NCBI GenBank assembly: GCA_026770585.1
Contig: MU646441.1
Coordinates: 210,071 to 236,295, forward strand
DNA length: 26,225 nucleotides
Direction of reading: 5' to 3'
Source: Baffinella frigidus
Lineage: Eukaryota > Cryptophyceae > Cryptomonadales > Baffinellaceae
A model generated the notes under the pieces. That model did no database searches and was not told where the DNA came from. It saw nothing but the letters and a program-made list of their open reading frames with translations. This document shows positions 5,934 to 25,379 of the stretch, piece by piece; within the stretch, counting starts at the first letter, position 1; each line of letters begins with the position of its first letter. A program made the translations under genes and the position numbers.

Positions 5934-8215
5934 ATGTCTGCGCAATCGCAAGGGGCTGCCTCCATGTGCAGGTGCGCGCGCCGTTCGAGCACCTGCTAAT
6001 AGGAGGAATAGTGTAGAGAGTTTTGATCCGTTGCATGCCGTTCTCCCCGTTTCCAGCCATCTGGCACCCTGACAGCCTGCCCTGTGCAGCCGCCATGATG
6101 CGGTCCAAGCGATCGTTCAGCGCCTCAACAATGGCGAGCACATGGCCGAGGTGAAGCTGGCCGGCTCGCTCATTGGGAAGACGGGCATCGCAAACGTCGT
6201 GAAGCCGCTGCAGGTTCCATCCCACTTGCCCGACCTTCTCGACCCGTCCTGCCGCGCCCGAGCTCTGTCTATTTGGGCTCGCAAATTTGGTGAGCCCGGG
6301 CTCTTTCCTGCTCCAAAGTTGACGGATTTGTACCGCGAACCCAGCATGTCAACTGAGAATAGTCGGTCGACCCGAGTGAGGCAGAGCTAGCCCCTGCCGC
6401 GCCATGCGGCGCGTGAACGCTCAGTGTCAGCGCCGGACGCCCCCTTCTCTCGCCCGGACCACCCCCCCCCCCATTGTGACACCGCACCAGCGCGCCCTGC
6501 GGAAAACCTAACGACAGGGGACCGTTAGGCAGGCATCTACCTGGTACAAACCCTGCGCGGTTCGGTCAACCGTTCTTCGTACGTGGCCTCGCAGGAGCAC
6601 ACTGATTGGTGTGTGTCTAACACCGATTCGTGTGTGTTTAACACTCATGTGTGTGTGTGCAGGAGAACACGCACGTGCGGCACGTGGACCTGGCATCGAA
6701 CGGCCTCAACGAATTCGGCGCCACCAAAATCGCCGAGGTCTCACCTGGAATCCATTTCCCCAGACTTTACAGGGCTGGTTGGAATCCATTTCCCCAGACG
6801 ATCTAATCCCGTGGAGTATTCATAATGAATACGATTTTGGTATATCTTAAGGGGTATGAATAAGACAGTCGTCTATCTAGACTTCATTTAGAGCCTTAAG
6901 ATGCACGAGAATCGGATCGGAGATCCCCGAAATCGTATTCATTATGAATACTCATCCGGATGAGATCGTGGAACCTCCCCCGGTTTATATGAGGGGGTAT
7001 ACGGGAAATCGGTCCACCCCTGCCTCAACAAATTTGACGCTACCAAAAACGCCGAGGTCTCCTAGCTCTGTCCCAGTCTTGGATGCGTGGACTGTTCTCA
7101 AGTTGACTTTCTAGGCCTGTGGTACAAATCCGTCAACTTTGGAGCGGAAAAGACCACGGGCACACCAGAGTGGTGTGACCAAATAGACCGAGGCGGAGCG
7201 AGGAGGTAACAACGAATTCGGCGCCACCGAGAGGTCTCGAATCCTAGCCCTGCCTGCGTAAAAATCCTTTCCCTCTCTCACTCAACTGGGCAAGTCCTTT
7301 TCTCTCCATCTTTTCTCAACAGGGTACGCCCTCATGTCTGCATCGTTTCCACATGCGGAAACTCAGTTGCGTTCTCCCGTCGGATTTCTCAGGTGCTGGA
7401 CCTTTTGTGTTTTTTTCGTCGGCGTTCCCAGTTGCTCAACCTGTCGCGTTTTTGCTGAAAATTATGTTTTTCCCGAAAAACCTGTTTTTCCTGAAAAACG
7501 TGGTTTTTTCCGGTTGGATTTCGCAGGTGCTGATCCTCTCCAACGGGCTGCGCTCACCCTTATTCCCTCCAGCGCACTGAAATAAACTTACCACCTTCAT
7601 AACGTGCCACCCTCTTCTCTTCGTCTTTTACACGTGCTGAACCTCTTGTGTTTTCCCGTCGGATTCCCAGGTGCTGAAACTCTCCAACGGGCTGCGGTCC
7701 CTCTCCCTCGAAGACAACTCTATAAAGAACCCCGGGGCCGAAGAGCTGGCGGCGGCGATCGAAGTGAACTCGAATCTGCATACGCTCCACCTCTCGTGCA
7801 ACCGCATCGACGACTCAGGCTGCCAGGTTCGGGGATCCTAGGGTTTCGGGTTCAGGGTCTGGAGTCTAGGGCGTAGGGTCAGTCTGGAGTCTAGGGCGTA
7901 GGGTCAGTCTGGAGTCTAGGGCGTAGGGTCGGTATTTTGTACAAGTCCCTACACCCTGAGCCAGGTGTGAGGGGTTACACGGTGCTGTGCAGGCCCGCTT
8001 GCATGTTTCAGCGGGGGTTGTTTTTGGCTGAAGGGTTATAGGGTGTGGAGTTAAGGGGTTGGGTGCTAGGGGTTTGGATCGGCTGAGGAGCTGGCGGCGG
8101 CGATTGAAGTGAACTCGAATCTCCATACGCTCCACCTCTCGTGCAACCGCATCGACGATTCAGGCTGCCAGGTTCGTTTGCAAAACGCATTGATGCCGAG
8201 GAGTGTAAACATATG

Positions 8216-8260
<45 letters not shown>

Positions 8261-11200
8261 ATATATTGCAAACGCATTGATGTTGAGGAGTGATGTTGAG
8301 CAGTTTGTATAAAATTTGCCAGCCGATGTCGATGAGTGCCCCCATGCATGCAGCGGGTCGCACTCACCACAGCTCACGACGTTGCTTTGTACTCAAATGG
8401 GGGGCATTCGGCGGTTTTGTCAAGCATCAAGAAATTTATTTAATTTTGGGAATCCCTCGGTTGTTGGCTAACCCGGGGCAATTTTGTAGAAGGAAAAAAA
8501 GGTTATAACAGGCAGGTCCGCAGCAGTCAAGGCTTTACATAGACAATAGTTGCACGGGGGAGTTGCAAGAAAGCGCGCTGGTCTTGAGGAGTGCTAAACC
8601 ACTAAATTTTTATTTGATTCGCGCAAGTCTACATAAGACCTAATTTGATTTGCGTAAATCTACATACAACTTGAACTTAATTTGAGACATACACCTACAT
8701 CTCACCATAAATCCATATGAAACCTCACATAAACCTTCACGAAATCTCACAATGCACGGCACGTTCTGCAGAGGCTCGCGGTGGCGCTGCGGAGCAACAC
8801 CTCAATCCACACCTTCTTCCTCGGCCGCAACAACTCGATCTGATCTGATTTGCACAAATCCTACGTGCAATCTCGCAATCTTACATACACCTAGAGCTAC
8901 ATAGAAAATCATAATCTTGCATAAATCTACCTTAAGTTTCAATTGTAACACACAATGCACGGCACGTTCTGCAGAGGCTCGCCGTCGCGCTGCGGAGCAA
9001 CACGTCGATCCACACCTTCTTCCTCGACCGCAACAACGCCGGGGACGACTTCGCCCGCGAAATGGGCGTCACTCTCCAGGTTGCGTGTTTGTGGGTCAGG
9101 TTCAGGCTTCAGGCTTCAGGCTTCAGGCTTCAGGCTTCAGGGCTCTATCACGCACATGCAAGTCTCTCACTTACATGTAAGTATGTAAGTTAGAGACCAC
9201 TCGACGTTCTTCCTCGACCGAAACAACGCCGGGGATGACTTCGCCCGCGAAATAGGGCATCACCCTTCAGGTTGGATCACATCCCACCCCTGAGTTATCA
9301 ACACAAGGTTTAGTGTTTGGGGTTTAGGCATCGTGCTTCAGGTTGCGAGCCCTCACCCCAAACCCCACACCCGTATACCCCCCTCCCCCGAGCCCCCCCC
9401 CATCGCACGACCGTGGAGAGATCTGGGAACAACACGTCGACCCACACGTTCTTCCTGGACCGCAACAACGCGGGCCATGATTTCGCCCGCGAAATGGGCA
9501 TCACGCTGCAGGTTGCTAAACCATGAACCCAAAATCTTAGACCCTTACAACAACCCTAAACCCGAAACCCGAAACCCGAAACCCGAAACCCTGAACCCTG
9601 AACCCTAAACCCTAAACTCTACACCCCAAACCCCAAACCCCAAACCCCAAACCCTAAACCCCAAACCCCAAACCCTAAACCCCAAACCCTCGACAGATGA
9701 ACAGGACCCTCCACACGCTGGACCTTTCAGACACCGACATCAAATTCGCGGGAACCCTTCACCCTGCACCCGTCACAGATGAACAGCACCCCACGCACTA
9801 AACCCTCAACCCCTAGCAGATGACCCTGCTCACGCTCGGCTCGGATTGAGGGGCAGAGCGCTGTGCAGATAAGTTGGCCACCGAAAAATGGGGAAATGGG
9901 AAAATTGGAGCCATTTTGTCCACTCGTGAGAAATTCATGGTACCAAATTTCTCGAAAGTCGATAAAATGGCTCCAATTTCTCAATTTCCAATGTTTCCCG
10001 TGGCTAACTTCTCTGCACGGCGCTCTACACGGTGTAGGCCGACGGGAGGCGCTCGAGCTCCTACTAAACCCTAAACCCTCAACCCTTCACAGATGAACAG
10101 GACGCTGCACACGCTGGACCTTTCGGATAACGACATCAAGTTCCCGGGCGCCGCAGCCCTCTCCAAGGTCAACCCCCCAAAACCGGAAACCAAAACTCGA
10201 AAACCGAAAACCGAAACCCCGCCGCTGCCCTCTCCGCGGCAAGATTCCCGTCCAGTTTGGTGTAGGTTTCGGGCTTAGGGATGCGTTCAGGTTTCGGGGG
10301 CAGGGAAACTTGACAGATGAACCGGACCCTCCACACGCTCGACCTTTCGGGTAACGACATCAAGTTCCCGGGCGCCGCAGCCCTCTCCAAGGCAAGCCTC
10401 CATCCACGAAACCCTCACCCGAAACCTGAACCCCGAAACCCGAAACCCGAAACCATGCCCCATACACCCCAATCCCTAACCCCGAACCCGTCAACCTTGT
10501 TGGTCGAAGGCGGTTTCGGGCAACAGCACGATCGCGGCGCGCACCCTCCCATATTGGCCGACTATGCTTAACCACACAGCGGGCTACGAAGGGATTTTCG
10601 GGCGCTGAGAGCCCGAGTTTCCGTTACCTCATCCGTAGGAACCCCCCTCTGCCCCTACGGGTTGCCTACCGTAGGGTCCTAGGTCTCGTCGCTTAGGGGT
10701 TATTCAAAGTCTCTTCGAAGTCCGCTGTATGGGTTGACATGCTGGGTGTGCTTTGGCACCAATCTATCAACTTCGGAGAAATTTGAGCCCGGATAATCCC
10801 TGTCGCAGGCGGTTTCGGGCAACAGCACGATGACGGCGCTGAACCTCACCCGCAACTCCATCGGCAACGAGGCCTGACTATCCTTAAGTTGCCACGCTGG
10901 GTGCGTATGCGTACCAATCTGTCAACTTTGAAGCGAAAACGAGCCCGGCCTCACCAAATCCGTGAGCCCAAATAACCCCTATCGCAGGGCGGTTTCGGGC
11001 AACAGCACGATGACGGCGCTCAACGCCTCCCAACCAACCCCTAAACCTTTCAACCCGAAACCCAAAACCCGAAACCCGGATCCCTGAACCCTGGACCCTG
11101 ATCCCTGAACCCTGAACCCTGAACCCTGAACCCTGAACCCTGAACCCTAAACACTGATCCCTCAACCCTGTCGCAGGCGGTGTCGGGCAAAAGCACGATG

Positions 11201-14200: not shown

Positions 14201-17200
14201 GCCCGTAGGACCCTACGGTAGGACATCCGTAGGGACCTAGGGGTTTCCTAGGGGGGTGAATAGACGGCTGGTACACTGTGACGTGTCAGCGCTGCACGTG
14301 AACACAACGCTACAGGAGCTTCATCTCGCGTGGAACTGCATCGTCGAACATGGTTCATCCCTCAAGGCCCAAACCCGAAACAGCTTATTTCGGGTCTGGG
14401 AGCTTCGGATTTTCGTTCCGTAGGACCCTACGGTAGGACATCCGTAGGGACCTAGGGGTTTCCTAAGGAGGTGGCGTCAGCGCTGCACGTGAACGCAACG
14501 CTCCAGGAGCTCCACCTCGCATGGAACTGCATCGTCGAACACGGTAGAGCGTTTGCGGTAATTGTTGTCCGTTTTGGACATACGGTTTTCCCGTTTCCCG
14601 GGTTTGATTTGTACCAGAAGTGTCCATTTAATTTTTTTTACGAACTTTAAATGGACACTTTTGGTACAAATCAAAATCGGAAAACGGGAAAACCGCAAGT
14701 CCAAAACGGACAACAATTACCGCAAACGCTCTACATTAATACGGTAACGGACGACTGAAATCTGGGTAGTTACGCTTACGATATTGACTACGGTAGGCCC
14801 GTAGACCCGGGTTTCTCGTAGGCCCCCTGCTAGGCCCCTACGGCCTACGTGTAGGGGCCTACCGTAGGCACGGTACATCCATATCAAAACCCTCAACCCT
14901 GAAACTTGCGTAGGCCCTTCCGCCTCCCTCCGCCCGGCCTTCCGGCTCTTCGCGGTCATTTTTCTATTCAAACCTTAAACCCTAAACACTAAACCCTAAA
15001 TCCTAAACCCTAAATCCTAAGCTCTCAACCCCACACCCTACACCCTAAACCCCAAACCCCAAACCCTGAACCCTGAACCTTAAACCCTAACCCCTAAACT
15101 CCAAACCCTAAACCCCAAACCCCAAACCCCAAACCCTAAACCCTAAACCCTAAACCCCAAACCCAACCCTAAACCCTAAACCCTGAACCAGGTGCGAAGG
15201 CGTTGGCGGACGCGCTGTGCGTCAACACAACCCTCACCTCCCTCGACATCTCCGCCAACGGCATCGGCAAGGTCAATTTCATCCCCGGAAGATACCTGAA
15301 TCAGTTGCGCTTTATTCACTTTATTACGGGGTTGAATTGTTGAATAGGAAGAATTTGCACGGGTGCCTAAGGTTTAATTAGGCTGCCTATTTAATTCAGT
15401 TCTCCGCACGACGCTCACCTCCCTCGACATCTCCGCCACGGCATCGGCAAGGTCTCTTTAATCCCGCGAGACACCCAAATCCGTTGCACTCCGGTGTTGG
15501 ATCGTTGAATAGGAGGAATCTGCAAGAACCCCAACCCCTGAGCCCTGAACCGTAATCCCTAACCCGTAAACCCTAAACCCAAAACCCGAAACCCGAAACC
15601 CTCGATGTCAGGAGGGGGCCTCGCACGTGTCCCGGGCGTTGACGGTCAACTCGACACTTCGTGCGCTGCATCTCCACGGTAGATCCTGAACCCTCACCCC
15701 CTAGACCCCAACCCCCAAATCCTCAATCTTCCACTCGAACCCCGAAATCCTGAACCCTGTACCTGTACCGTGCCCTGCACCTCCACGGTACACCCTACAC
15801 CCAAAACCCTGAATCCTGAACCCGAAACCCGAAAACTGAAACCCTCTAAACTCTACACTCGCAACCCTGAATCCTAAACTCGAAACCCGAAACCCGAAAC
15901 CTGAATCCTCAACCCTGAACCCGAAATCCTGAGCCCAAACCCTACACCAGGCAACGTGCTCAAGGAGGAGGGGCCCAAGCACATCGCCAAGGCTCTTCAG
16001 ACCAACCGGGTACGCGCCCCACAGCGGAACTCGTTACGCAACCTTCCAGTCCTGATGGGCTTTTCTGGGCCCTGAAGCGGATCAAATCCCTTTTCGAGGC
16101 CTGGCAGTTTTCAGAGTCTGAAAAGGGGGTGAGCGTAGAGGGAATTTGATCCGCTTCAGATCCCAAAAAGCCCATCAGGGCTGGAAGGTTCCGAAACTAG
16201 AACGAGCCTTTGTGTAACCCCAAAGTCGACGGATTTGTACCGCACACCCACCTTGTCAACTTGAGAATAGTCAACCCGAGTGAGGCGGAGCCACACAGTG
16301 GGCTTCAAAGGAAACTGTGTGGTGGGTATGTGCTGAGGGAGGAGGGGCCGAAGCACATCGCCAAGGCCCTCCAGACCAACCGGGTGCGCCCCGTTGGCCT
16401 AAACCCTAAATCCTAAACCCTAAACCCCCTTGACAAACTGGTCAAAACTACCATGGTCAAATTGTACCGCGACACCTCTGAACACGGCCGGAGTTTTGAC
16501 CAGATTCCTCTCCCCGTCCCAGGTGCTCGAGCTGCTCGATCTGGTAACGAAATCGGGCCATCGAACATCAAACCCTAAACCCTAAACTCTAAGCTCTAAG
16601 CTCTAAACCCCAAACCCTAAACCCTAAACCCTAAACCCTAAAACCCTAAAACCCTACGGGCCCTCGACTTGAAACCTAAACCCCAAACCCCAAACCCTCA
16701 CCCCTAAAAGTATTGGAGCTGCTCGATCTGGACGGCAACGAAATCGGGCCCTCGAACATCAAACCCCAAACCATAACCGCTAAAGCCAAAACCCTAATCC
16801 CAGGTGCTCGAGCTGCTCGACTTGGACGGCAACGAGATCGGGCCATCCAACATCAAGGATAGGGGTTAGGGTTCAGAGGAAACCCTAAACTTCAAACCCT
16901 AAACCATAAACCCTAAACCCTCCTCAACCCTCCTCAACCCTCATAAACCCTAAATCAAAGGTGCTGGAGTTGCTGGATCTGGACGGCAACGAGATCGTGC
17001 CCTCGAACATCAAACCCCAAACTCCAAACCCCAAACCCCAAACCCTGAACCCTGATCACCAAACCCCACCCCTCAAAGGTGCTGGAGTTGCTCGATCTGA
17101 TTTAGTGGAAACCCTAAACCTTGAATCCTCAACCCTCAACCCTCCTAAACCCCAAACCCCAAACCCCAAACCCCAAACCCCAAACCCCAAACCCCAAACT

Positions 17201-20200
17201 AGGTTCTCGAGCTGTTGGACCTCGACGGCAACGAAATCGGGCCCTCGAACATCAAGGACACTCACCCCCAAACACCAAACTCTAAATCTTCAACCCTCGA
17301 CCCTTAACCCCAAAGGTGCTCGAATTGCTCGATCTGGACGGCAACGAGATTGGGCCATCCAACATCAAGGACATCGCCGACGCGCTCCGCGTCAACGTCT
17401 CCCTCCAGACATTGAAGCTGGCGCGGAACAAGATCAACGACGTGGGCGCGTGGGAGCTCGCCGAGGCCCTCAAGGTCACACACCCCCCCCACCCGCGTCC
17501 GGGACAGTGTCTTGGATCCCGGTGGGGCCTTGGTGTGCATGCGTGGCTGCGGGGCCTCGAAGGGATTGGTGGTACTGGGACTAGGACCTCTACTGCTATA
17601 CTGGTGCTGGTTCTGGTACTGGTACTTGTTTAGGGTGTATGGTTTACGGTTGAGGGCGACGCGCTCCGCGTCAACGTCTCCCTCCAGACATTGAAGCTGG
17701 CGCGGAACAAGATCAATGACGTGGGCGCGTGGGAGCTTGCTGAGGCTCTCAAGGTCCCGACCCTCTCTCCTTACAACTAACGCTAGACGCTACACCCTAA
17801 CCCCTACACCCTACACCTTACGTCCTGCACCCTACACCCTACACCCTACACCCTACACCCTACACCCTAAACCCTACACCCTACACCCTACACCCCACCC
17901 CACACTCTACACTCGCCACCCTATCCCCCCCCCCCTGCTATTCCCGGCGGTTCGAAGAGCCCTAGGATTTACCAAAGTCAATTCGGTATGCTCAACGACC
18001 CTGACTCTCAAACCTTGAACACTATCCCCACCTGAAACAGGTGAACCGATCGCTGACGAAGCTAGACCTGACGCGCAACTCGGTCGAGGAGGCGGGCGCC
18101 ACCGACCTCAACTCCAACCCCTAGGACATACCAGGCCAATACCGCATGCATAAATATTTAACTTTTGCCATCTTAGGGGTGAATTTTGTGTTATGGTAAA
18201 GCTATGGCGAAGCTAAGATAGCACATTCCACACTAGCACATTCCACACTTGATGTAGCATGGAACAGTGATTTAAGTTGAACGTGTTCCCGCATTAAATC
18301 CCTAACGCCTGAAACAGGTGAACCGATCGCTGACGAAGCTCGACCTGACGCGCAACTCCGTCGAGGAGGCGGGCGCCACCGACCTCAACTCATCCCGAAA
18401 CCCAATCTACTCCCATGCCCTATCTTCCAAACTCTATTCCCTGAACCTTTACCCCCAAACCATGAACCCTGCACACTAAACACTAAACACTAAACACTAA
18501 ACACTAAACACTAACACTAAACACTTAACACTAAAACACTAAACACTCAACACTATCCCCACCTGAAACAGGTGAACCGATCGCTGACGAAGCTGGACCT
18601 GACGCGCAACTCGGTCGAGGAGGCGGGCGCCACCGACCTCAACGAGGTGAGCGTGCAGGGTCAGGGTGGAGAGTGACGGGTAGGGTGGAGGGTAGAGGGT
18701 GGAGGGTCTAGGGTCTAGAGTGCAGAGTGTAGAGTGTAGAGATTAGGGTCGAAGGTGGAGAGTGTAGGGTGTAGGGTGTAGGTTGGAGAGTGGATGGTGG
18801 AGGGTTTAAGGTCTAGGGTGCAGGGTGCAGGGTTGAGGGTCTGACGAAGCTAGACCTGACGCGCAACTCTGTCGAGGAGGCGGGCGCCACCGACCTCAAC
18901 GAGGTCCAAGGGTTAACGTTTTAGGTTTCATGTGCAGGTGTAGGGCAGGGCACAGGTGTAGGGCACATAGAGCACCCGCAGGCTTCTGACGCTCTTGGTG
19001 TCCCCCTTGCTGACCCCCTTGCTGACCCTCTCGTTCTCTGACCCTCTTATTCTCTGACCCCTTTGTTCTTGTTCGCACATGCCATGTACAGGTGTAGGGC
19101 ACAGGAGGCTCCTGACCTGGTTGATGGTTTAGGGTTGAGGTTACAGGCTGCTGACCCCCTTTCTTGTTCGTGCATGCTGACCCTCTTGTTTATTGACCCT
19201 CTTATTTCCCGACCCTCTTATTCTCTGACCCCCTTGCTCGTGTGCGCACAGGCAATGTGCATCAACAACGTCCTCCGGGAGCTGCACCTCTCCTACAACC
19301 GCATCAAGGAAGCGGTCCGTGCCCTCCCCTCCGCAGTTGACTAAACTGGAAGGGGTTTGTACTAAGAAGAGGACGCGACCAGGCGTGTTTAGTACCGGGA
19401 AAACGTGCGTTCAGTCAACTGCATCGAACGAAGGGGTGTCAACAACGTCATGTGGGAGCTGCACCTCTCGTACAACCGCATCAAGGAAGCGGTCCGTGCC
19501 CCCCCCTCCGCAGTTGACTAGACCGTGGCGCAGTTGACTAATCTGGGCGGGGTTTGTACGAGGAAGAGGACGCGACCAGGCTGGATTAGTACCGGGAAAA
19601 CGTCTAATTAGTCAACTGCATCACCAACGTCCTCCGGGAGCTGCACCTCTCGTACAACCGCATCAAGGAAGCGGTATATTTCGCCCAGCCTGAACCATAA
19701 ACCCTAAACCATGAACCATGAACCGTGAACCATGAACCATAAAGCCTCAACCATAAACCATAAACCCTAAACCATAAACCCTAAACCCTAAACCATAAAC
19801 CCTAAACCCTAAACCCTAAACCCTAAACCCGCTACCCTCTCCTAAACCCGAAGTCCCCAAGACCCTCAACCTCAAACCCTAAAACAGGGGGCGGCATCGC
19901 TGTCGAACGCGGTGCGGTTCAACACGACGCTGCACACGCTCAAGCTCGCGGACAACGACATTAACGAAGTTGGTGCGCTCAAGATCGCTGAGGTAGAGCC
20001 CAGTAATCCCTAAACCCTACCGTATTTCGTACCGTATTTACTACTGTTCAATACTGTAATTTACCATTTACAACTGTAAATTACCATGCACGACGCTGCA
20101 CACCCTCAAGCTCGCGGACAACGACATTAACGAAGTTGGCGCGCTCAAGATCGCTGAGGTAGAGCCCATGAATCCCTACAGCCTGATCCATAAACCCTAA

Positions 20201-22374
20201 AACCTACCGTATTTAACATTCCATGCCGTTATCCCTAATCCCTAATCCCTAATCCTTCATCCCTGAACCCTCATCCCTAAACCCCAAACCCCAAACCCCA
20301 AACCCCAAACCCCAAACCTCAAACCCTAAACCCTCAAACCTCAACCCTAAACCCTAAACCCCACAACCCACACCCCAAACCCTAAGGCCTAAAACCTAAA
20401 ACAGGCGCTCTCCGTGAACTCGACGATCCACACCCTCGACATTCTCGGAAACAACCTCTCGAAAAATACTACCGTGTTTAATACCGAGTTTAATACTGCC
20501 ATTTACCATTTAACACCGCAATTTACCAATTCAAGCCGTAATCACTAATCCCTAGTTAATACCGTAACCCCTTATCCCCACCATCTAATACCTCATTCAC
20601 TAATCCTCAATACCCAATTCCTAAAATAGTAAACTCTAAACTCTAAACCCTAAACCCCCAACCCCCAACCCCAAACCCCAAACCCCAAAACCCACCCCCA
20701 GGCGCTCTCAGTGAACTCGACGATCCACACCCTCGACATGCTCGGGAACAACCTCTCGAAAAAGGCAATCCCCCACCGCCCCTTCCCCGACACACTGTGG
20801 TGTGTGCACAACACACTCCGTTTTCATCTCGGAAGATAACTGAATCAGTTCCTTTTCAATGGGAGGTTGCATAGGAGAAATGAGTTAGGGCATAGTAAAT
20901 TTAATTAGGCCTCCTAATTAAATGAAAACGCTAATTAGGGAACTGGTTCAGTTATCTTTCGAGATGAGTTTGGTGTGCATCACACAGCGGGGAGTGCACG
21001 ACATGCTGCGGCTGACCGGACGGACATTTGTCGCGGACGTGCTGGACACGATAGTAGACACGACATCCTGTTGAGTGTGCGCAACACTCTTGCTGATAGA
21101 AGGACACACTCTTGCTGACAGAAGGACACACACAGGTGGAGGACATGCTGGACGCGATCGTGCGAAACTCCAACGCCTACGTCCGCATCCCGTCGGAATT
21201 CCAGGCACGCACACCCGAAACCCGAAACCCTAAGCCCGAAACCCGAAACCCGAAACACGCTTACGTCCGCACCCCCTCCGAATTCCAGGCAAACCCTAAA
21301 CCCTAAACCATAAACCACCGAAACCTCAGCACTAAGCCCTAAGCCCTAAGCTCGAAACTCGCTTACGTCCGCATCCCATCGGAATTCCAGGCACGCCATC
21401 CCGAAACCCGAAACCCGAAACCCTGAACTCTCTCTCTGTATTACCCTGAATCCTGAACCCAGAAATGCTTAGGTCCGCATCCCGTCCGAATTCCAGGCAT
21501 TCAAATTCTACGCCCGAAACCCGAAACCCTGAATTCTTTCTCTCTCTTGATTTCCCCAAACCCTGAACCCTGAATCCTGAACTCTGAAACGCTTACGTCC
21601 GCACTCCGTCCAAATTCCACGCACGCCCTGAGCTATTTTGGTTTTGATCCGTAGTATCACTTAGTAACACGCCCTAATCAATGAACAATGCACAATGAAC
21701 AATAAATCATAGATAATAAATGATAAACAATAGACAATACAAAATGCACAATGCACAACAAACAATAACCCCCAAATTCTAACCCAGGAGGCCTTATGCA
21801 TGGGGCTGCACGTGCGGCTGGGCGCCGATCCAAACTGCTAAAATCCGGGTAGTAAACCGGATCCGGGTAGTGCGTAGGACCCTACGGCGTCGCCTACTGT
21901 AGGGTGCTACGGAGTGCTATGGAATGGTACGGAGTACCCGTACCCGAAACCCGAAACCCGAAACCCTAACCCAGGAGGCGTTGTGCATGGGGCTGCACGT
22001 GCGGCTGGGCGCCGATCCAAACTGCTGGGTCCGCATTCTCGACGAGTCTCTGGTACACCCCAAACCCTAAACCCCCTAAACCCTGAACCCTTAACCCTAA
22101 ACACTAATCACCAAACCCTTAACCCTAAACACTAATCACCAAACCCTTAACCCTAAACTCTAATCACCAAACCCTTAACCCTGAACCCTGAACCCTAAAC
22201 CCTAAACCCTAAACCCCAAACCCTAAACCCTAAACCCTGATCCCCAAACCCCAAACCCAAAACCCCAACCCCCAATCTCTAACCCCCAAACCCTAAACCC
22301 TAAACCTTAAACCCCAGGTCATGATGGTGATCGAGTGCTCTACGGTCGCGGCGCCGCGCAAGTTCCAATTCTGA
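5934..22374 (+). CDS. Leucine-rich repeat protein, ribonuclease-inhibitor type, 22 exons, 615 residues
   Basis: Proposed exons: 5934-5971, 6090-6213, 6663-6737, 7671-7826, 8975-9079, 10093-10167 (alternative 10317-10391), 11371-11445, 11757-11825, 12468-12550, 13342-13409, 14012-14116, 15192-15271, 15612-15678, 15951-16009, 17316-17474, 18572-18646, 19252-19314, 19888-19992, 20702-20764, 21136-21204, 21975-22052, 22318-22374 (stop TGA). They total 1848 nt and all phases match, including split codons at five junctions. Start MSAQSQGAASMC was chosen because its exon ends in phase 2, as the next one needs. The protein is 19 LRRs of pattern LxxLxLxxNxIxxxGAxxLAxAL. The Asn (Ser in the first repeat) recurs every 28 residues across all junctions. 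The last three exons (starting VEDMLDAIV, EALCMGLHV and VMMVIECS) form a non-LRR C-terminal cap I do not recognise. No signal peptide or membrane segment is seen, so a soluble, protein-binding horseshoe is likely; the partner is unknown. Donors are GT except GC after 12550, 20764 and 21204. Exon inclusion and the start are inferred, not proven. Confidence 0.85.
6261..6388 (-). mobile_element. AAGTTGAC-family MITE, copy a (full length)
   Basis: A 128-bp element ending in AGCTCTG (6261-6267) and CAGAGCT (6382-6388). It contains CAAAGTTGACGGATTTGTAC and a TGTCAACT segment in opposite orientation, followed by GAATAGTC. It lies in the intron after the second exon. Related copies occur at eight other places in the gene. 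Confidence 0.7.
6600..6662 (+). repeat. TGTGTGT-rich intron end before exon 3
   Basis: GT-rich degenerate repeat (TGTGTGTCTAACACC, TGTGTGTTTAACACT) ending in the acceptor TGTGTGTGCAG at 6662. Confidence 0.6.
6797..6970. mobile_element. Foldback with 24-bp perfect inner arms
   Basis: 6814-6837 (GAGTATTCATAATGAATACG...) is the exact complement of 6930-6953. Imperfect pairing extends outward (ACGATCTAATCC against GGATGAGATCGT). It lies in the intron after exon 3. A direct repeat of GGAATCCATTTCCCCAGAC precedes it (about 6749 and 6781). Confidence 0.75.
7022..7235 (+). repeat. Two 5'-truncated copies of exon 3 with an AAGTTGAC-family MITE between them
   Basis: 7022-7056 matches the last part of exon 3 (CTCAACGAATTCGGCGCCAC...GCCGAG) with several substitutions and keeps the donor GAG|GTCTC. 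7205-7235 is a second, shorter copy. Between them, about 7074-7199, is MITE copy b on the + strand (AGCTCTG start, TCAAGTTGAC, GGTACAAATCCGTCAACTTT, ending GGCGGAGC). Both exon copies follow the complete exon and lack its 5' end. Confidence 0.7.
7385..7670 (+). repeat. Acceptor-side decoy copies of exon 4
   Basis: Acceptor plus first exon bases recur before the complete exon 4: TCTCAG|GTGCTGGACC at about 7392, and CGCAG|GTGCTGATCCTCTCC at about 7528, which keeps about 30 nt of exon. GTGCTGAACCTCTTGTG at about 7634 resembles the 7392 copy. The true acceptor is ATTCCCAG at 7670. The intervening sequence (TTTTCCCGTCGGATT) also repeats, showing that the unit duplicated was intron end plus exon start. 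Confidence 0.65.
7830..8171 (+). repeat. Telomere-like intron sequence and a 5'-truncated copy of exon 4
   Basis: 7830-7935 holds three copies of GTCTGGAGTCTAGGGCGTAGG. 8082-8171 repeats the last 90 nt of exon 4 almost exactly (GCTGAGGAGCTGGCGGCGG...GGCTGCCAG) and keeps the donor CAG|GTTCG, but has no acceptor. This is one of the few introns where the G-rich strand is sense. Confidence 0.75.
8172..8771 (+). other. Intron interior with a TG microsatellite
   Basis: A (TG)16 run at 8224-8256 is flanked by repeats of AACGCATTGATG (about 8185 and 8271). From about 8590 to 8960 an AT-rich motif such as CTACATAAACC/TTTGATTTGCGTAAATC recurs loosely. No coding signal. Confidence 0.6.
8772..8834 (+). 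repeat. 3'-truncated copy of exon 5 with intact acceptor
   Basis: The context GCACGGCACGTTCTGCAG, identical to the acceptor of the complete exon at 8974, is followed by about 63 nt of exon 5 (AGGCTCGCGGTGGCG...GGCCGCAACAAC) and then unrelated sequence. No donor. Confidence 0.8.
9200..9511 (+). repeat. Two 5'-truncated copies of exon 5 with donors
   Basis: 9200-9270 matches the 3' part of exon 5 with a frame-disrupting change (GAAATAGGGCATC) and keeps TTCAG|GTTGG. 9422-9511 matches the last 90 nt (CAACACGTCGACCCACACG...GGCATCACGCTGCAG) and keeps CAG|GTTGC. Neither has an acceptor. A tract of CAGGCTT repeats lies at about 9100-9140. Confidence 0.75.
9545..9690 (+). repeat. CCCTAAA/CCCCAAA/CCCGAAA intron array
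   Basis: Telomere-like repeats with the C-rich strand sense, segregated into blocks of CCCGAAA, CCCTGAA, CCCTAAA and CCCCAAA. The array runs directly into the acceptor AACCCTCGACAG at 9696. Confidence 0.9.
9697..9800 (+). repeat. 3'-truncated decoy copies of exon 6
   Basis: Acceptor CGACAG then ATGAACAGGACCCTCCACACG, matching exon 6 for about 58 nt before diverging at about 9754. A micro-copy CACAG|ATGAACAGCACC follows at about 9780. Neither has a donor. Confidence 0.8.
9855..10026. mobile_element. Foldback with about 27-bp imperfect outer arms
   Basis: AGAGCGCTGTGCAGATAAG...(9855-9881) pairs with GTGGCTAACTTCTCTGCACG... (10000-10026). Inner segments ATTGGAGCCATTTT and AAAATGGCTCCAATTT also pair. 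It lies in the intron before exon 6. Confidence 0.7.
10093..10391 (+). CDS. Two complete copies of LRR exon 6 (alternative exons)
   Basis: 10093-10167 and 10317-10391 each encode MNRTLHTLDLS(D/G)NDIKFP..., 25 codons, differing by one residue. The first has donor AAG|GTCAAC, the second AAG|GCAAGC. Either one gives the exact 28-residue repeat spacing to its neighbours. Including both would place two consensus Asn only 25 residues apart, so they are more likely alternatives than consecutive exons. This is the only exon present twice in complete form. Confidence 0.7.
10507..11345 (+). repeat. Four acceptor-side decoys of exon 7 alternating with AAGTTGAC-family MITEs
   Basis: Copies start at about 10511 (short, GAAG acceptor), 10809, 10988 and 11178, each with AG|GCGGT(T/G)TCGGGCAA. 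The second and fourth run for 66 nt and then pass directly into TGACTATCCTTAAGTTG, the start of a MITE (10876-10985 and 11241-11345); the third stops after 42 nt. A degenerate MITE lies at 10727-10806. None of the copies has a donor. The complete exon follows at 11371. Confidence 0.8.
11446..11756 (+). repeat. CCCTAAA-type intron array with a truncated copy of exon 8
   Basis: Telomere-like variants (CCCTACA, CCCTAAA, CCCTGAC) fill the intron. At about 11587-11625 a copy of the exon 8 start (GCGGCCAAAATCCTGGGCC...CTGAAGCA) breaks off into CCTAAACCCC. The complete exon begins after AAATAG at 11757. Confidence 0.8.
11857..11962. other. Assembly gap (106 N)
   Basis: A run of N in the intron after exon 8. 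Any frames crossing it are artefacts. Confidence 1.
12071..12122 (+). repeat. 5'-truncated copy of exon 8 with donor
   Basis: GAACAAAATCGCTGAAGCAG...ATCTCGGAC matches the last 50 nt of exon 8 and keeps GAC|GTAAAT. It follows the complete exon and the N gap. Confidence 0.8.
12123..12467 (+). repeat. CCCTAAA/CCCTGAA/CCCCAAA intron array
   Basis: Telomere-like variants with the C-rich strand sense, running into the acceptor CTAAACTCTACAG at 12467. Confidence 0.9.
12551..12895 (+). repeat. Two 5'-truncated copies of exon 9 joined to inverted MITE copies
   Basis: 12681-12761 and 12817-12895 repeat the 3' part of exon 9 (CTCGAGCT...GACAACCGCGTCAGCAG). They keep the same GC donor context, CAG|GCACG. 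Each is preceded by a minus-oriented AAGTTGAC MITE (about 12590-12680 and 12768-12820) ending GAATAGTC or GGATAGTC just before the exon part. No acceptor is present. Confidence 0.75.
12900..13085 (+). repeat. CCCTAAA-type intron array with ACCATTAACCTCAT units
   Basis: Three copies of CCTAAACCCTAAACCATT (12904-12972), then CCCTAAA and CCCCAAA blocks. Confidence 0.85.
13176..13320 (+). repeat. 3'-truncated decoy of exon 10 followed by AAGTTGAC MITE (+)
   Basis: AACAG|CGTGGGGGCGACGGAGG matches the exon 10 start for about 46 nt. It then runs into a MITE (about 13224-13320: TTAAGTTGACACAG, GGTACAAATCCGTCAACTTT). The next complete acceptor is ACAG at 13341. Confidence 0.8.
13411..13845 (+). repeat. 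Three 5'-truncated copies of exon 10 in a CGCGCCCCCCTTAA minisatellite
   Basis: The end of exon 10 (ATCCAGTCCCT...CTCTCAG) recurs at about 13517-13548, 13660-13691 and 13739-13752, each followed by GCTCG. The spacers are a C-rich minisatellite with units such as CTCGCGCCCCCCTTAAACC. Confidence 0.75.
13853..13925 (+). repeat. 3'-truncated decoy of exon 11
   Basis: ACAG|GGAACGGGATCGCGGGCC... follows exon 11 for about 55 nt (to CTGCACGTGA) and then diverges into GTCTGCACGGGCCTGA. No donor. Confidence 0.75.
14117..14543 (+). repeat. Two 5'-truncated copies of exon 11 alternating with a CCTACGGTAGG-type element
   Basis: 14285-14352 and 14470-14543 repeat the 3' part of exon 11 (TCAGCGCTGCACGTGAAC...GTCGAACA(T/C)G) and keep the donors G|GTTCAT and G|GTAGAG. 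A conserved stretch (GAAACAGCTTATTTCGGG...CCTAGGGGTTTCCTA) separates the copies, at about 14160-14255 and 14378-14466. The duplicated unit is therefore exon end plus element. Confidence 0.8.
14545..14733. mobile_element. Large foldback with about 85-bp arms starting at a donor site
   Basis: TAGAGCGTTTGCGGTAATTG (from 14545) is the exact complement of the sequence ending at 14733. Pairing continues with a few mismatches to about 14628/14650. The first base of the arm is the T of the GT donor of the last exon-11 copy. Similar open frames on both strands are due to the symmetry. Confidence 0.85.
14755..14880. repeat. CCTACGGTAGG/CCTAGG-rich palindromic segment
   Basis: Several interlocking palindromes (CTACGGTAGGCC, GGCCTACCGTAGG). 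At about 14870 the phrase GCACGGTACATCC repeats the donor region of exon 11, a further remnant. Confidence 0.6.
14965..15190 (+). repeat. CCCTAAA/CCCCAAA intron array before exon 12
   Basis: Continuous telomere-like variants, C-rich sense strand, ending in the acceptor CCCTGAACCAG at 15191. Confidence 0.9.
15272..15451 (+). repeat. TTTCATC-family element and a 5'-truncated copy of exon 12
   Basis: After the donor AAG|GTCAA, an element begins TTTCATCCCCGGAAGATA and ends near TTAATTCAGTTCTC (about 15278-15402); the same family appears at 20821-20971. Then 15405-15451 repeats the end of exon 12 with a 1-nt deletion (GCCACGGC) and keeps AAG|GTCTC. Confidence 0.7.
15679..15950 (+). repeat. 5'-truncated remnant of exon 13 and CCCGAAA-type array
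   Basis: ACCGTGCCCTGCACCTCCACG|GTACACC at about 15768-15790 repeats the end of exon 13 with a donor. The rest is CCCGAAA, CCCTGAA and CCTCAAC variants ending in the acceptor CCTACACCAG. Confidence 0.7.
16040..16190. mobile_element. Foldback with about 48-bp imperfect arms
   Basis: AACCTTCCAGTCCTGATGGG... (from 16040) pairs with ...CCCATCAGGGCTGGAAGGTT (to 16190), including the inner segment GAAGCGGATCAAATCCC. It lies in the intron after exon 14. Confidence 0.8.
16205..16383 (+). repeat. Inverted AAGTTGAC MITE and a 5'-truncated copy of exon 14
   Basis: About 16210-16300 is a minus-oriented MITE (AAAGTCGACGGATTTGTAC, TTGTCAACTTGAGAATAGTC). 16328-16383 repeats exon 14 from GTGCTGAGGGAGGAGG to CAGACCAACCGG with the donor CGG|GTGCG but no acceptor. 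Confidence 0.75.
16523..17261 (+). repeat. Array of six acceptor-side decoys of exon 15
   Basis: Copies start at 16523, 16710, 16804, 16961, 17079 and 17203. Each follows an AG and carries the exon 15 start, GTGCT(C/G)GAGCTGCTCGATCTG or close. Most stop at or near CATCAA and pass straight into ACCCCAAA/ACCCTAAA repeat. The first lacks 5 nt inside, and the fifth ends after 22 nt. None has a donor. The complete exon is 17316-17474. Confidence 0.85.
17475..17753 (+). repeat. 5'-truncated copy of exon 15
   Basis: 17657-17753 repeats the second half of exon 15 (GACGCGCTCCGCGTCAACG...GAGGCTCTCAAG) and keeps AAG|GTCCCG. A CTGGT(A/T)CTGG tract lies just before it (about 17600-17628). Confidence 0.8.
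17754..18040 (+). repeat. CCCTACA-type intron array
   Basis: CACCCTACACCCTA repeats at about 17795-17920, a distinct local variant of the telomere-like unit. The acceptor for the first exon-16 copy is GAAACAG at 18040. Confidence 0.85.
18041..18571 (+). repeat. Two 3'-truncated decoys of exon 16 and an ACACTAA array
   Basis: 18041-18112 and 18318-18389 repeat exon 16 up to GACCTCAAC but lack the final GAG and donor. Each follows the same acceptor context CTGAAACAG. The intron before the complete exon contains a homogeneous AACACTA array (18472-18553). Confidence 0.85.
18647..18903 (+). repeat. GGGTGGAG/GTGTAGGG array and a 5'-truncated copy of exon 16
   Basis: This is one of the few introns with the G-rich strand sense (AGGGTGGAGGG, GTGTAGGG at 18650-18838). 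18840-18903 repeats the last 64 nt of exon 16 with the donor GAG|GTCCAA. Confidence 0.8.
18904..19251 (+). other. Intron with TTCTCTGACCC repeats
   Basis: Repeated CTGACCC(C/T)(C/T)TT phrases at about 19000-19070 and 19145-19235, and two copies of ATGTGCAGGTGTAGGGCA-like sequence (about 18930 and 19085). Ends in the acceptor TGCGCACAG. No gene. Confidence 0.6.
19333..19673 (+). repeat. GCAGTTGACTA foldbacks alternating with 5'-truncated copies of exon 17
   Basis: Elements at 19333-19422 and 19530-19619 start GCAGTTGACTA and end AGTCAACTGC. Exon 17 parts at about 19437-19491 and 19619-19673 follow directly, each keeping AAGGAAGCG|GT. The element end CTGC merges with TGCATCA(A/C)CAACG of the exon, so the breakpoints fall at the same exon position. 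Confidence 0.8.
19674..19887 (+). repeat. CCATAAA/CCCTAAA intron array
   Basis: A mixture of AACCATAAACC and AACCCTAAACC units, C-rich sense, ending in CCCTAAAACAG at 19887. Confidence 0.9.
19993..20158 (+). repeat. 5'-truncated copy of exon 18
   Basis: 20091-20158 repeats the last 68 nt of exon 18 (CGACGCTGCACACCC...AAGATCGCTGAG) with the same downstream donor context GAG|GTAGAGCCCA. It is preceded by ACCGTATTTACT/AATTTACCATTTAC units. Confidence 0.8.
20159..20404 (+). repeat. CCCTAAT/CCCCAAA intron array
   Basis: Blocks of AATCCCT and ACCCCAA, C-rich sense strand, running into the acceptor CCTAAAACAG at 20404. Confidence 0.9.
20405..20701 (+). repeat. 3'-truncated decoy of exon 19 and repeats
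   Basis: 20405-20466 repeats exon 19 up to CTCTCGAAAAA and then passes into TACTACCGTGTTTAATACC. Downstream are loosely repeated TTTACCATTTAACACCG units and CCCCAAA repeats up to the acceptor ACCCCCAG at 20701. Confidence 0.8.
20821..20971. mobile_element. TTTCATC-family foldback with about 31-bp arms
   Basis: TTTCATCTCGGAAGATAACTG... (from 20821) pairs with ...AGTTATCTTTCGAGATGAGT (to about 20971). The inner part has TTAATTAGGCCTCCTAATTAA. The left half closely resembles the element after exon 12. Confidence 0.8.
21205..21620 (+). repeat. Four 5'-truncated copies of exon 20
   Basis: The end of exon 20 (TACGTCCGCATCCCGTCGG then AATTCCAG) recurs at about 21258-21288, 21361-21390, 21467-21496 and 21589-21618. 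The first three keep CAG|GCA; the last reads CAC|GCACG. Spacers are CCCGAAA, CCCTGAA and TCTCTCT-type repeats. Confidence 0.85.
21640..21787 (+). other. AT-rich intron segment with ACAATGCACAATGA units
   Basis: Loose repeats of ACAATAAATGATAAACAATAG (one continuous degenerate tract, 21675-21770). Ends in the acceptor CTAACCCAG at 21787. Confidence 0.6.
21788..21974 (+). repeat. 3'-truncated decoy of exon 21
   Basis: 21788-21840 repeats exon 21 up to CCAAACTGC, then reads TAA and unrelated CCTACGGCG sequence. The acceptor context CTAACCCAGGAGGC is the same as that of the complete exon at 21975. Confidence 0.85.
22053..22317 (+). repeat. Last intron: CCCTTAA/CCCTAAA/CCCCAAA array
   Basis: Includes three copies of ACACTAATCACCAAACCC or close, then CCCTAAA and CCCCAAA blocks, ending in TAAACCCCAG before the terminal exon. 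Confidence 0.9.
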
Positions 22375-23678: not shown

Positions 23679-23931
23679 TTGGCTCACTCGAGCCTTTGTC
23701 AACTTCAGTCGTCGACTTTACCAGGTCTCTTAAGTTGACAATCACTGATATTCTCGTTGATATTCTCGTTGATATTCTCGTTCTGGGAAAATGGGGCTGA
23801 GCCCCCTTAGTGTTCTTTAGGTCCTTTAAGTTCTTCGAGCTCCCAACATAGGCGGACACCGGAACTTGTTCTGTAGAAAGGCCGTGCTTCCTTTCGGATC
23901 ACATCCAGGCCCCCCTGTACAGCGGATCGCG

Positions 23932-24584
23932 GCAGAACCGGCTTCTGGGGTAGTTTTGGAGAATAACCTGTTCGTGCAGATTCCACGGCCGATTGACATC
24001 TGTCACGCGTTGCACCGCGCCCGAGTGAAGACACATGCACTCCTTGAACCGTCCGCCCTTTCCAGGCACGCGGAAGGCCCCTAGAGGCCGAGATGGAGGT
24101 GCGCGCTCTGCTGGACCTTCTGCGCGAGAACCGGGCACACGGGCAACCCATGCAGGCATTGCGTTACCAGTTTAATAAGGTAACGGCCTGAAAATGGGGT
24201 AGTTGGGCCTACGGCACTGCCTAGGACCTCCTACAGTAGGCCGAGACTTTTTGGTCCTAGGAACCCTGGGCCTACGGTAGGAGGTCCTAGGCAATACCGT
24301 ATGCCTAACTATCCCATTTTCAGGCCGTTATCCTATGAAGGTGGTCTATGGGGGGCTCCTCAGCGGGATCACCTTCCCACGACTTGATGAGCTCATCACG
24401 CGGACGCCGAAGCCAACTGTCCGAGGTGACTGCCTTGCGTTGTACTGTAGTAATTTTTAGCCATAGAGCAACGTCCCCAGTCTCCGGATCGAGGAGCGCG
24501 AGGTGCTCGGAAAGCGAATTGGCCTATCTGCGCAGGGAGACTGGGAACGAGGAGCTCATCGAGTTGTGGGAAGACGAAGGTTAG
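23932..24584 (+). CDS. Pieces of an unrecognised gene, interrupted by an intron and apparent frameshifts
   Basis: Three coding-like blocks. Block 1 (23932-24081) includes VVLENNLFVQIPRPIDICHAL and ends at TAG. A -1 frame change then gives block 2 (24081-24179), LEAEMEVRALLDLLRENRAH to QFNK, with donor AAG|GTAACG. Block 3 (24341-24460) resumes in phase as VVYGGLLSGITFPRLDELIT to LALYCSNF. After a possible AG at 24466, a further block (about 24489-24584) reads RIEEREVLG, then with one frame change SELAYLRRETGNEEL, ending WEDEG and TAG. The family is not recognised. Frame changes suggest a decayed gene copy, sequencing errors, or introns I cannot place. Confidence 0.45.
24180..24340. mobile_element. 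Foldback forming an entire intron (introner-like)
   Basis: 24181-24204 (TAACGGCCTGAAAATGGGG...) pairs with 24307-24330 with one mismatch. The G before it and the T of the arm make the donor GT. The acceptor AAG ends at 24340, 10 nt after the right arm. The flanking frames join in phase 0. The interior carries CCTACGGCAC, CCTACAGTAGG and CCTACGGTAGG. Confidence 0.65.
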
Positions 24585-24973: not shown

Positions 24974-25130
24974 CCTGCTTGGGGCTCATAACCTCTGGAT
25001 CCGCCGGTTTCCAGTGAACGATCCACCCCTTAGGGGTGGTTACAGGCATTGGAGCCCTGCGTCTCGATCATCTCTCCCCCTAGCGTGTGCCGTCGACATA
25101 TCAACTTAATAAACAACGCTTTCCCCCCTT
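24974..25130. other. Spacer inside the large inverted repeat, no gene seen
   Basis: No open frame or repeat of note apart from a small hairpin CCACCCCTTAGGGGTGG at about 25024-25040. Confidence 0.5.
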
Positions 25131-25379
25131 TCTGCGGCGATCCTCTGTACAGGGTGGCTTGATGTGATCCGAAACGAAGCATGGCCTTTCTACAGAACAA
25201 GTTCCGGTGTCCTCCTATGTTGGGAGCTCGAAGAACCTAAAGGACCTAAAGAACACTAAAGGGGGTCGGCCCCATTTTCCCAGAACGAGAATATCAACGA
25301 GAATATCAACGAGAATATCAGATGGGAGGGGTTCGACCTGTAATAAACACATCGTCGGAGTTCCCATCCTACCCACACT

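What the first reader, a model, noticed from the sequence alone, without database searches (positions are those of the whole stretch)
5934..22374. Strict polarity of partial exon copies around complete LRR exons
Nearly every exon has partial copies nearby. About 22 copies upstream of their complete exon keep acceptor plus exon start and lack the donor. About 25 downstream copies keep exon end plus donor and lack the acceptor. I found no copy of the opposite kind. A tandem duplication that spans one exon-intron junction yields exactly this arrangement. The mRNA is unchanged if the outer splice sites are joined, which would explain tolerance. The gene would then be a lineage record of junction-spanning duplications, with introns full of decoy splice sites. 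The scale (17 of 22 exons) is what seems unusual.
Basis: partly seen in the sequence, partly recalled or inferred. Interest (0 to 1): 0.88.

Follow-up and report, generated by a model that had tools for sequence, protein, structure and literature searches.

The report
Junction-spanning exon fragments crowding introns
In this eukaryote's genes many exons sit among partial copies that keep one splice site each, with a fixed polarity; the pattern is not confined to the reported gene, and the copies still look like working coding sequence, which simple dead duplicates should not.

Summary
Confirmed. The 22-exon LRR gene (5934-22374) has 44 partial exon copies above every control score: 20 upstream and 24 downstream of the intact exon. 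By a strict rule 18 upstream copies keep only the exon start, 23 downstream copies only the exon end, none is opposite; 19 of 22 exons are affected. One whole-exon duplicate exists (10317-10391). A myosin and an unnamed gene of the same 382-Mb genome show the same: 74 of 86 aligned copies over three genes are polar. So the pattern is not special to the LRR gene.

Tandem duplication across one junction explains the polarity. In the LRR gene whole-exon copies are about 28-fold rarer than random tandem units of that spacing would give, as expected if extra complete exons are spliced in and purged.

"Inert decoys" fits poorly. Copy-exon differences fall 20:18:151 on codon positions 1:2:3. In 11 chosen unit pairs, introns differ at 13.2%, third positions at 16.7%, first and second at 1.5%. 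Copies keep exon-like GC3, strong splice sites, few stops. I infer that they were coding for most of their divergence: captured from diverged functional alleles, or still used. RNA and haplotypes would decide; neither was available.

The parts
5934..22374 (+). LRR gene, 22 exons (E1-E22) plus duplicate exon E6b; 615-aa protein with one of E6/E6b
   Evidence: splice model; Pfam LRR_6 1.4e-63
5934..5971 (+). E1 (first exon, start codon; boundary least certain)
6090..6213 (+). E2
6663..6737 (+). E3 intact
7022..7056 (+). E3 downstream copy, end + donor
7210..7228 (+). E3 downstream fragment (alignment stops short of the exon end)
7527..7569 (+). E4 upstream copy, acceptor + start
7671..7826 (+). 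E4 intact
8081..8171 (+). E4 downstream copy, end + donor
8772..8834 (+). E5 upstream copy
8975..9079 (+). E5 intact
9204..9270 (+). E5 downstream copy
9423..9511 (+). E5 downstream copy
9697..9752 (+). E6 upstream copy
10093..10167 (+). E6 complete exon (GT donor)
10317..10391 (+). E6b complete duplicate exon (GC donor)
10510..10548 (+). E7 upstream copy
10809..10872 (+). E7 upstream copy
10989..11024 (+). E7 upstream copy
11177..11241 (+). E7 upstream copy
11371..11445 (+). E7 intact
11589..11624 (+). E8 upstream copy
11757..11825 (+). E8 intact
12073..12122 (+). E8 downstream copy
12468..12550 (+). E9 intact (GC donor)
12683..12761 (+). E9 downstream copy; all 8 differences at codon position 3
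12834..12895 (+). E9 downstream copy; all 5 differences at codon position 3
13176..13217 (+). E10 upstream copy
13342..13409 (+). E10 intact
13517..13547 (+). E10 downstream copy
13657..13690 (+). E10 downstream copy
13855..13910 (+). E11 upstream copy
14012..14116 (+). E11 intact
14285..14350 (+). E11 downstream copy; intron of the unit also aligns
14466..14543 (+). E11 downstream copy
15192..15271 (+). E12 intact
15407..15451 (+). E12 downstream copy
15612..15678 (+). E13 intact
15769..15787 (+). E13 downstream copy (score 28, at threshold)
15951..16009 (+). E14 intact
16330..16383 (+). E14 downstream copy
16523..16571 (+). E15 upstream copy
16720..16762 (+). E15 upstream copy (alignment starts at exon base 11)
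16804..16859 (+). E15 upstream copy
16961..17013 (+). E15 upstream copy
17079..17099 (+). E15 upstream copy
17203..17260 (+). E15 upstream copy
17316..17474 (+). E15 intact
17657..17753 (+). E15 downstream copy
18041..18112 (+). E16 upstream copy
18318..18389 (+). E16 upstream copy
18572..18646 (+). E16 intact
18841..18903 (+). E16 downstream copy
19252..19314 (+). E17 intact
19439..19491 (+). E17 downstream copy; intron of the unit also aligns
19617..19673 (+). E17 downstream copy
19888..19992 (+). E18 intact
20089..20158 (+). E18 downstream copy
20405..20466 (+). E19 upstream copy (62 of 63 bases, donor lost)
20702..20764 (+). E19 intact (GC donor)
21136..21204 (+). E20 intact (GC donor)
21251..21288 (+). 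E20 downstream copy
21353..21390 (+). E20 downstream copy
21464..21496 (+). E20 downstream copy
21588..21619 (+). E20 downstream copy
21788..21839 (+). E21 upstream copy
21975..22052 (+). E21 intact
22318..22374 (+). E22 last exon, stop codon

Best explanation
The copies are products of frequent local tandem duplication (spacing 84-396 bp in this gene) seen in three genes of this genome. SHOWN: the polarity, its recurrence in three genes, tandem-unit homology in part of the cases, scarcity of whole-exon copies in the LRR gene, exon-like splice sites, and the coding-like pattern of differences. INFERRED: a tandem duplication across an acceptor leaves the truncated copy upstream and the intact exon downstream, and one across a donor leaves the truncated copy downstream, so the opposite kind is not made directly. 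A lone acceptor or lone donor is ignored because exon definition needs a close acceptor-donor pair; a duplicated whole exon would be spliced in and is purged. INFERRED and less certain: the copies are not old dead relics of this chromosome. They were captured or refreshed by recombination (template switching, unequal exchange or gene conversion) from functional exons of strongly diverged alleles, so that copy and exon already differed at synonymous and intron sites at birth, and turnover is fast enough that little decay has followed.
For: Polarity: 18 UP-start + 23 DN-end against 0 opposite of 44 in the LRR gene; 74 polar of 86 aligned copies in three genes, with 1 opposite (half of a whole-exon copy), 3 with both ends, 8 with neither. 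Tandem geometry: intron homology at the predicted place in 13 of 44 at rank 0.05 or better (2.2 expected). Whole-exon scarcity: random tandem units of the observed spacing give whole-exon: single-junction 0.134: 0.21; observed 1: 44, p 7e-9. Coding-like differences: codon positions 20:18:151, copy against copy 28:24:118; 11 unit pairs chosen because their introns align give introns 113/854, third positions 33/198, positions 1+2 6/395; dead-copy simulation reached by 0 of 200; not a composition effect (GC sites: position 3 16.0%, position 1 3.4%, position 2 1.7%); GC3 0.859 in copies, 0.879 in exons, intron GC 0.51. Other genes: myosin 18:15:51, third gene 20:17:76.
Against: No second allele or close paralogue was found: of 34 matches to the protein in its own genome 30 lie at this locus and the 4 elsewhere are 31-36% identical; only the best candidates are scored there and withheld stretches may not be searchable. 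E15 (six copies and the exon) would need several distinct source haplotypes. Near-identical copies, expected from sister-chromatid events, are rare: 4 of 44 reach 97% identity, one of them a 19-nt fragment. 24 of 44 copies show no tandem-unit homology at rank 0.1, though exon parts are mostly 85-98% identical. Copies sharing a breakpoint, probably made by copying an already truncated copy, still differ largely synonymously (E15, E16), while E7 and E17 pairs do not. The whole-exon test takes the copy spacing as the length of the duplicated unit; if the duplicated pieces were shorter, with filler between them, fewer whole-exon copies would be expected without selection. In the myosin gene 2 of 15 copies reach both exon ends. 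Exon definition in this organism is assumed.
Confidence: 0.45

Rival explanations
1. The copies are used: they contribute coding sequence to the product, for example by alternative or unconventional splicing between a partial copy and the intact exon, or by collapse of the direct repeats at DNA level before expression. Purifying selection then acts on the copies themselves.
For: All codon-phase results; splice sites of copies score like those of exons (acceptor median 8.8 against 7.6, donor 6.5 against 6.3; the copies are relatives of the sites that trained the score); exon parts alike while adjoining introns are unrecognisable in many cases; syn:nonsyn is gene-dependent (LRR 149:40, myosin 39:32 with its x1 family left out, p 3e-4).
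Against: No ordinary splicing path uses a copy that lacks one site without adding intron. 9 of 44 alignments hold an indel that is no multiple of 3, some at the break edge; in-frame stops in 1 of 44 and 1 of 15 copies. No clear gradient of constraint from splice end to break end (p 0.06 and 0.40).
Confidence: 0.2
2. One reading: copies dead since birth, made by tandem duplication on the same chromosome and tolerated as decoys.
For: Polarity and tandem units. In the myosin gene the bias is weaker (61% at position 3; 1 of 200 simulations reach it, 3 of 200 without the x1 family), and the E7 pair 10809/11177 and the E17 pair differ by 3 nonsynonymous codons each against 1 and 0 synonymous.
Against: Position-3 share 0.80 against 0.45 expected in the LRR gene, p 8e-23; third gene 76 of 113, p 1.5e-6; myosin p 0.003. 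Copies keep exon-like GC3.
Confidence: 0.15
3. Noncoding copies are kept coding-like by constant gene conversion with the real exon in a very large population: chromosomes whose copies carry damaging changes export them into the exon and are selected against.
For: Same data; copies are near and similar to the exon. No call tests it directly.
Against: It should be at least as strong in a myosin gene, where the bias is weaker; it would also favour loss of the copies.
Confidence: 0.1
4. Assembly artefact: overlapping pieces of diverged haplotypes laid end to end (false heterotype duplications).
For: It would give tandem geometry, polarity and coding-like differences. Known from heterozygous genomes, with gaps between the copies and haploid read depth (PMC9516828, passages seen).
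Against: 44 copies at a median spacing of 184 bp with one N run in the window; several different E15 versions; whole-exon copies scarce although an assembler is blind to splicing (depends on the unit length assumed); the run of identity at the break end is under 20 bases in 37 of 44 copies (median 8), so breaks are not at long shared words.
Confidence: 0.1

Closest known systems
Intron gain by tandem duplication of an exonic AGGT segment (reviewed in PMC3443670; Drosophila cases in PMC2891723; passages seen)
   Same: Local tandem duplication in a gene, mRNA preserved by choice among duplicated splice motifs
   Different: There an intra-exonic segment is duplicated and a new intron arises. Here the duplication spans an existing junction and only existing introns grow
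Tandem exon duplication with mutually exclusive exons (recalled)
   Same: E6/E6b here and the first exon family of the myosin gene L023 are complete duplicates
   Different: The other copies lack one splice site; whole-exon copies are few here
False heterotype duplications in assemblies (PMC9516828, passages seen)
   Same: Tandem geometry, allele-like differences
   Different: One gap for 44 copies, several versions of one exon, scarcity of whole-exon copies
NLRC3-type proteins with RI-type LRRs
   Same: Protein of the window gene: LRR_6 repeats, about 40% identity to proteins named NLRC3 over 60-70% of its length
   Different: Pfam finds no NACHT or other named domain beside the repeats apart from a borderline DUF2202 match; the C-terminal 96 residues found no match among 189 candidates
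Lamprey VLR germline cassettes (recalled)
   Same: Partial LRR-coding pieces beside an LRR gene
   Different: Here pieces largely keep the amino-acid sequence, sit beside their own exon and occur in a myosin gene too

Membership tests
Intron gain by AGGT tandem duplication | Duplicated segment lies inside one exon | tested here: not met
   41 of 44 copies reach exactly one exon end
Intron gain by AGGT tandem duplication | Tandem duplicated unit | tested here: met
   Unit homology in 13 of 44 at rank 0.05 or better (24 of 44 show none at 0.1); some whole units align
Tandem whole-exon duplication | Copy has both splice sites | tested here: not met
   None of the 44 copies (one covers 62 of 63 bases but lost the donor); only the extra exon E6b
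Neutral decaying pseudo-exons | Differences spread over codon positions as for a dead copy | tested here: not met
   LRR gene 0.80 against 0.45 at position 3; 0 of 200
Functional coding exons | Copy present in mRNA | not testable with these tools
   No RNA data held
Functional coding exons | Synonymous excess in copy against copy | tested here: met
   111 synonymous against 44 nonsynonymous codons, pairs not independent
False heterotype duplication | Gap between copies | tested here: not met
   One N run in the window for 44 copies
False heterotype duplication | Haploid read depth over the copies | not testable with these tools
   No reads held
Capture from diverged alleles or paralogues | A second diverged gene copy exists | tested here: inconclusive
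   No match above 36% identity outside the locus; withheld stretches and a possibly haploid assembly limit this
RI-type LRR protein | 28-residue LRR repeats | tested here: met
   LRR_6 1.4e-63; 28-residue spacing read by eye

The most novel reading that the evidence does not exclude
The exon fragments are live coding sequence. In this lineage a gene is stored as overlapping, redundant, one-sided exon pieces around each intact exon, and the pieces are held under protein-level selection because they enter the product, by direct-repeat collapse of DNA or by an unconventional RNA joining step that needs no second splice site.
Probability: 0.17. Interest if true: 0.92.

Novelty: new variant of a known kind. 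Interest (0 to 1): 0.66.

Why it matters
Tandem duplication is a proposed engine of intron gain; the review seen lists 188 unambiguous events over seven kinds of organism (PMC3443670). Here one gene holds dozens of junction-spanning copies and two other genes hold more, so breakpoints, survival and selection can be measured directly. The scarcity of whole-exon copies may be a sequence-only readout of exon definition. The coding-like state of truncated copies is a real puzzle: either the species is hyperdiverse and its introns store pieces of other alleles, or copies without a full set of splice sites are somehow used. Gene finders may also mistake such copies for exons.

Tried and rejected
Neutral decoy model: rejected for the LRR gene by codon phase. 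Base composition as the cause: rejected. Duplication of a short piece with a filler insert, suggested by homology ending a few bases past the splice site: not excluded; unit homology exists at the predicted place in 13 of 44 and is absent at rank 0.1 in 24 of 44. Gradient of constraint from splice end to break end, expected from repeat collapse: inconclusive, p 0.06 LRR, 0.40 myosin. Paralogue source: none found in the searchable genome. Phase bias in unannotated local repeats: p 0.02 or lower in 5 of 9 stretches, none in the two window flanks, C124 and C150. Organism: not identified. Rfam and tRNA scans of the window: nothing. Literature: four searches answered, seven timed out; two papers were not held. 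Those four listings name no report of this pattern; no wider claim is made.

Full report
GENE. The window holds one long gene on the + strand, 5934-22374, 22 exons, for which I built a splice model with one continuous frame. Donors are GT except GC at E9, E19, E20 and at the duplicate exon E6b. The product is 615 residues of leucine-rich repeats (LRR_6, 1.4e-63). In the protein search 579 hits passed (120 listed, 7994 candidates scored); the best ten have no name, proteins named NLRC3 follow from rank 11, identities about 40%.

OBSERVATION. Each exon was aligned to the window with intact exons masked. The same searches against the reverse complement and the reversed sequence of the gene region never exceeded score 26, so 28 was the threshold. 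44 copies remain. By a strict rule (within 2 bases of the exon end) 18 of 20 upstream copies keep only the start, 23 of 24 downstream copies keep only the end, none is opposite, 1 reaches both ends (donor lost) and 2 reach neither. 19 of 22 exons have copies. One whole-exon pair exists, E6 and E6b; LRR spacing is 28 residues only when one is used.

OTHER GENES. The window lies in an unnamed assembly of 382,457,362 bases. I fetched 26 stretches of 10 kb; 67,341 of the first 250,000 letters were readable and 1,449 of the last 10,000. One stretch (L023) holds part of a myosin gene (Myosin_head 1.4e-45; exons). It has 15 copies at score 30 or more (control maximum 29): 4 upstream-start, 7 downstream-end, 2 reaching both ends (first exon family; one of these lost its donor), 2 neither. 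L016+L017, reverse strand, hold another gene without a Pfam match for the part tried; its nine chosen exons have 27 aligned pieces: 7 upstream-start, 15 downstream-end, 1 downstream-start, 4 neither (one far match near the control maximum of 31 was dropped). The downstream-start and one downstream-end are halves of one whole-exon copy with an internal deletion. Over three genes 74 of 86 are polar. The exons of the third gene were chosen by eye from self-similar stretches, so it is no random sample. Local direct repeats within 1 kb run at 10-27 per 10 kb in all nine stretches tested, window flanks included.

GEOMETRY. For each copy I asked whether the sequence beyond the break resembles the place that a tandem unit predicts. 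13 of 44 do at rank 0.05 or better and 20 of 44 at 0.1 or better, against 2.2 and 4.4 expected; 24 of 44 do not. Several whole units align. In many other pairs the homology ends 2-10 bases past the splice site although the exon parts are up to 98% identical; the flank beats 95% of non-cognate flanks in 10 of 24 downstream and 2 of 20 upstream cases. Tandem duplication across one junction gives the polarity by geometry. Random tandem units with the observed spacing (84-396, median 184) placed in this gene would span an acceptor only in 10.5%, a donor only in 10.5% and a whole exon in 13.4% of cases. With 44 single-junction copies about 28 whole-exon copies are expected; 1 is seen (p 7e-9). I read that as selection against extra complete exons. 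It holds only if the spacing is the length of the duplicated unit: shorter duplicated pieces with filler between them would rarely hold a whole exon anyway. In the myosin gene both-end copies are 2 of 15, so the scarcity is clearest in the LRR gene.

THE COPIES ARE CODING-LIKE. Differences between copy and intact exon fall 20:18:151 on codon positions 1, 2, 3. If copies had been dead since birth while the exon stayed constrained, position 3 should hold about 45%; it holds 80%, and 0 of 200 simulations reach that; if all change were on a constrained lineage 77-85% is expected. Copies differ from each other in the same way (28:24:118; 111 synonymous against 44 nonsynonymous codons, pairs not independent), and changes private to one copy fall 9:11:38. 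In 11 pairs of units chosen because their introns align (E16 adds only 17 intron bases), introns differ at 113/854, third positions at 33/198, first and second at 6/395: third positions run at about the intron pace, the others about ten times slower. Base composition is not the cause: G or C sites differ at 16.0% at position 3 against 3.4% and 1.7% at positions 1 and 2. GC3 is 0.859 in copies, 0.879 in exons, with intron GC 0.51. Splice sites of 29 and 45 strict copies score like the 49 and 49 real ones (acceptor 8.8 against 7.6, donor 6.5 against 6.3; random AG -1.2, GT 0.5); AG is kept in 27 of 29, GT or GC in 44 of 45; being relatives of the real sites they are no independent sample. One of 44 copies has an in-frame stop; 9 of 44 alignments hold an indel that is no multiple of 3, some at the break edge. 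The other genes agree more weakly: myosin 18:15:51 (p 0.003 against the dead-copy value), third gene 20:17:76 (p 1.5e-6). LRR copies look more constrained than myosin copies (149:40 against 39:32 synonymous to nonsynonymous, x1 family left out, p 3e-4).

AGAINST MY READING. Some copy pairs do look dead: E7 (10809 against 11177) 1 synonymous to 3 nonsynonymous codons, E17 0 to 3. No second allele or close paralogue turned up: the protein finds 34 matches in its own assembly, 30 at this locus and 4 elsewhere at 31-36% identity; withheld stretches and a possibly haploid assembly limit this. Copies that share a breakpoint (three of E15, two of E16, judged by eye) still differ largely synonymously, which capture from alleles explains only if truncated copies are refreshed by conversion. 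Only 4 of 44 copies reach 97% identity, few for a process said to be recent. The test for a gradient of constraint from splice end to break end was inconclusive (p 0.06 and 0.40).

WHAT IT IS. A logical point narrows the choice: two sequences on one chromosome that separated by duplication cannot both show protein-level constraint if one of them was never usable. So either the copies come from other functional versions of the gene (diverged alleles or lost paralogues), recently enough that little decay followed, or they are used, or exchange with the exon keeps them fit. I put the first at 0.45 and use at 0.2; neutral decoys (0.15), conversion-coupled selection (0.1) and assembly artefact (0.1) share the rest. 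Junction-spanning tandem duplication as such I hold at about 0.85, purging of whole-exon copies at about 0.7 (lowered on review, because the test depends on the unit length assumed).

KNOWN COMPARISONS. Intron gain by tandem duplication duplicates an AGGT inside an exon and makes a new intron (PMC3443670, PMC2891723; passages seen). Here the duplicated piece spans an existing junction. False heterotype duplications in assemblies show gaps between copies and haploid depth (PMC9516828, passages seen); here one N run stands beside 44 copies, and the run of identity at the break end is under 20 bases in 37 of 44. Direct repeats near splice sites have been surveyed at 4-30 bp (PMC11782384, abstract seen), shorter than most copies here. 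The four searches that were answered listed no report of this pattern.

Noticed in passing
window 5934-22374; L023: Seven-base CCCTAAA-type arrays fill many introns and run mostly in the sense of the gene (L023: 103 CCCTAAA against 1 TTTAGGG), so each unit offers a CTAAA that resembles a branch point (recalled consensus). One array in the LRR gene (18653-18840) and arrays outside it (4-200) run the other way.
   Followed up: partly
window 6263-6364, 7090-7192, 10876-10974, 11244-11325, 12583-12681, 13218-13299, 16220-16291: A repeated element of about 100 bp with AAGTTGAC-type ends lies in several introns in both orientations, in places inside the duplicated units.
   Followed up: no
window 14544-14734, 9855-10026, 16030-16200, 20824-20967: Long intron hairpins (arms 29-88 nt).
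   Followed up: no
window 24166-24345: A stretch that is one hairpin over its whole length (80% self-complementary) between pieces that look coding by eye; it may be an intron of a second gene made by an introner-like element (recalled kind).
   Followed up: no
L023 194-258, 424-488, 699-764: Three near-complete tandem copies of one 65-nt myosin exon; two have both splice sites, the third lost its donor and has a frameshift. As 65 is no multiple of 3, probably only one is used per mRNA.
   Followed up: partly
window 12550, 20764, 21204: GC donors at E9, E19 and E20; both E9 copies and three of four E20 copies keep the GC.
   Followed up: partly
window 23836-23937 and 25130-25230: Inverted pair, 92% identical; it may be the ends of a mobile element.
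   Followed up: no
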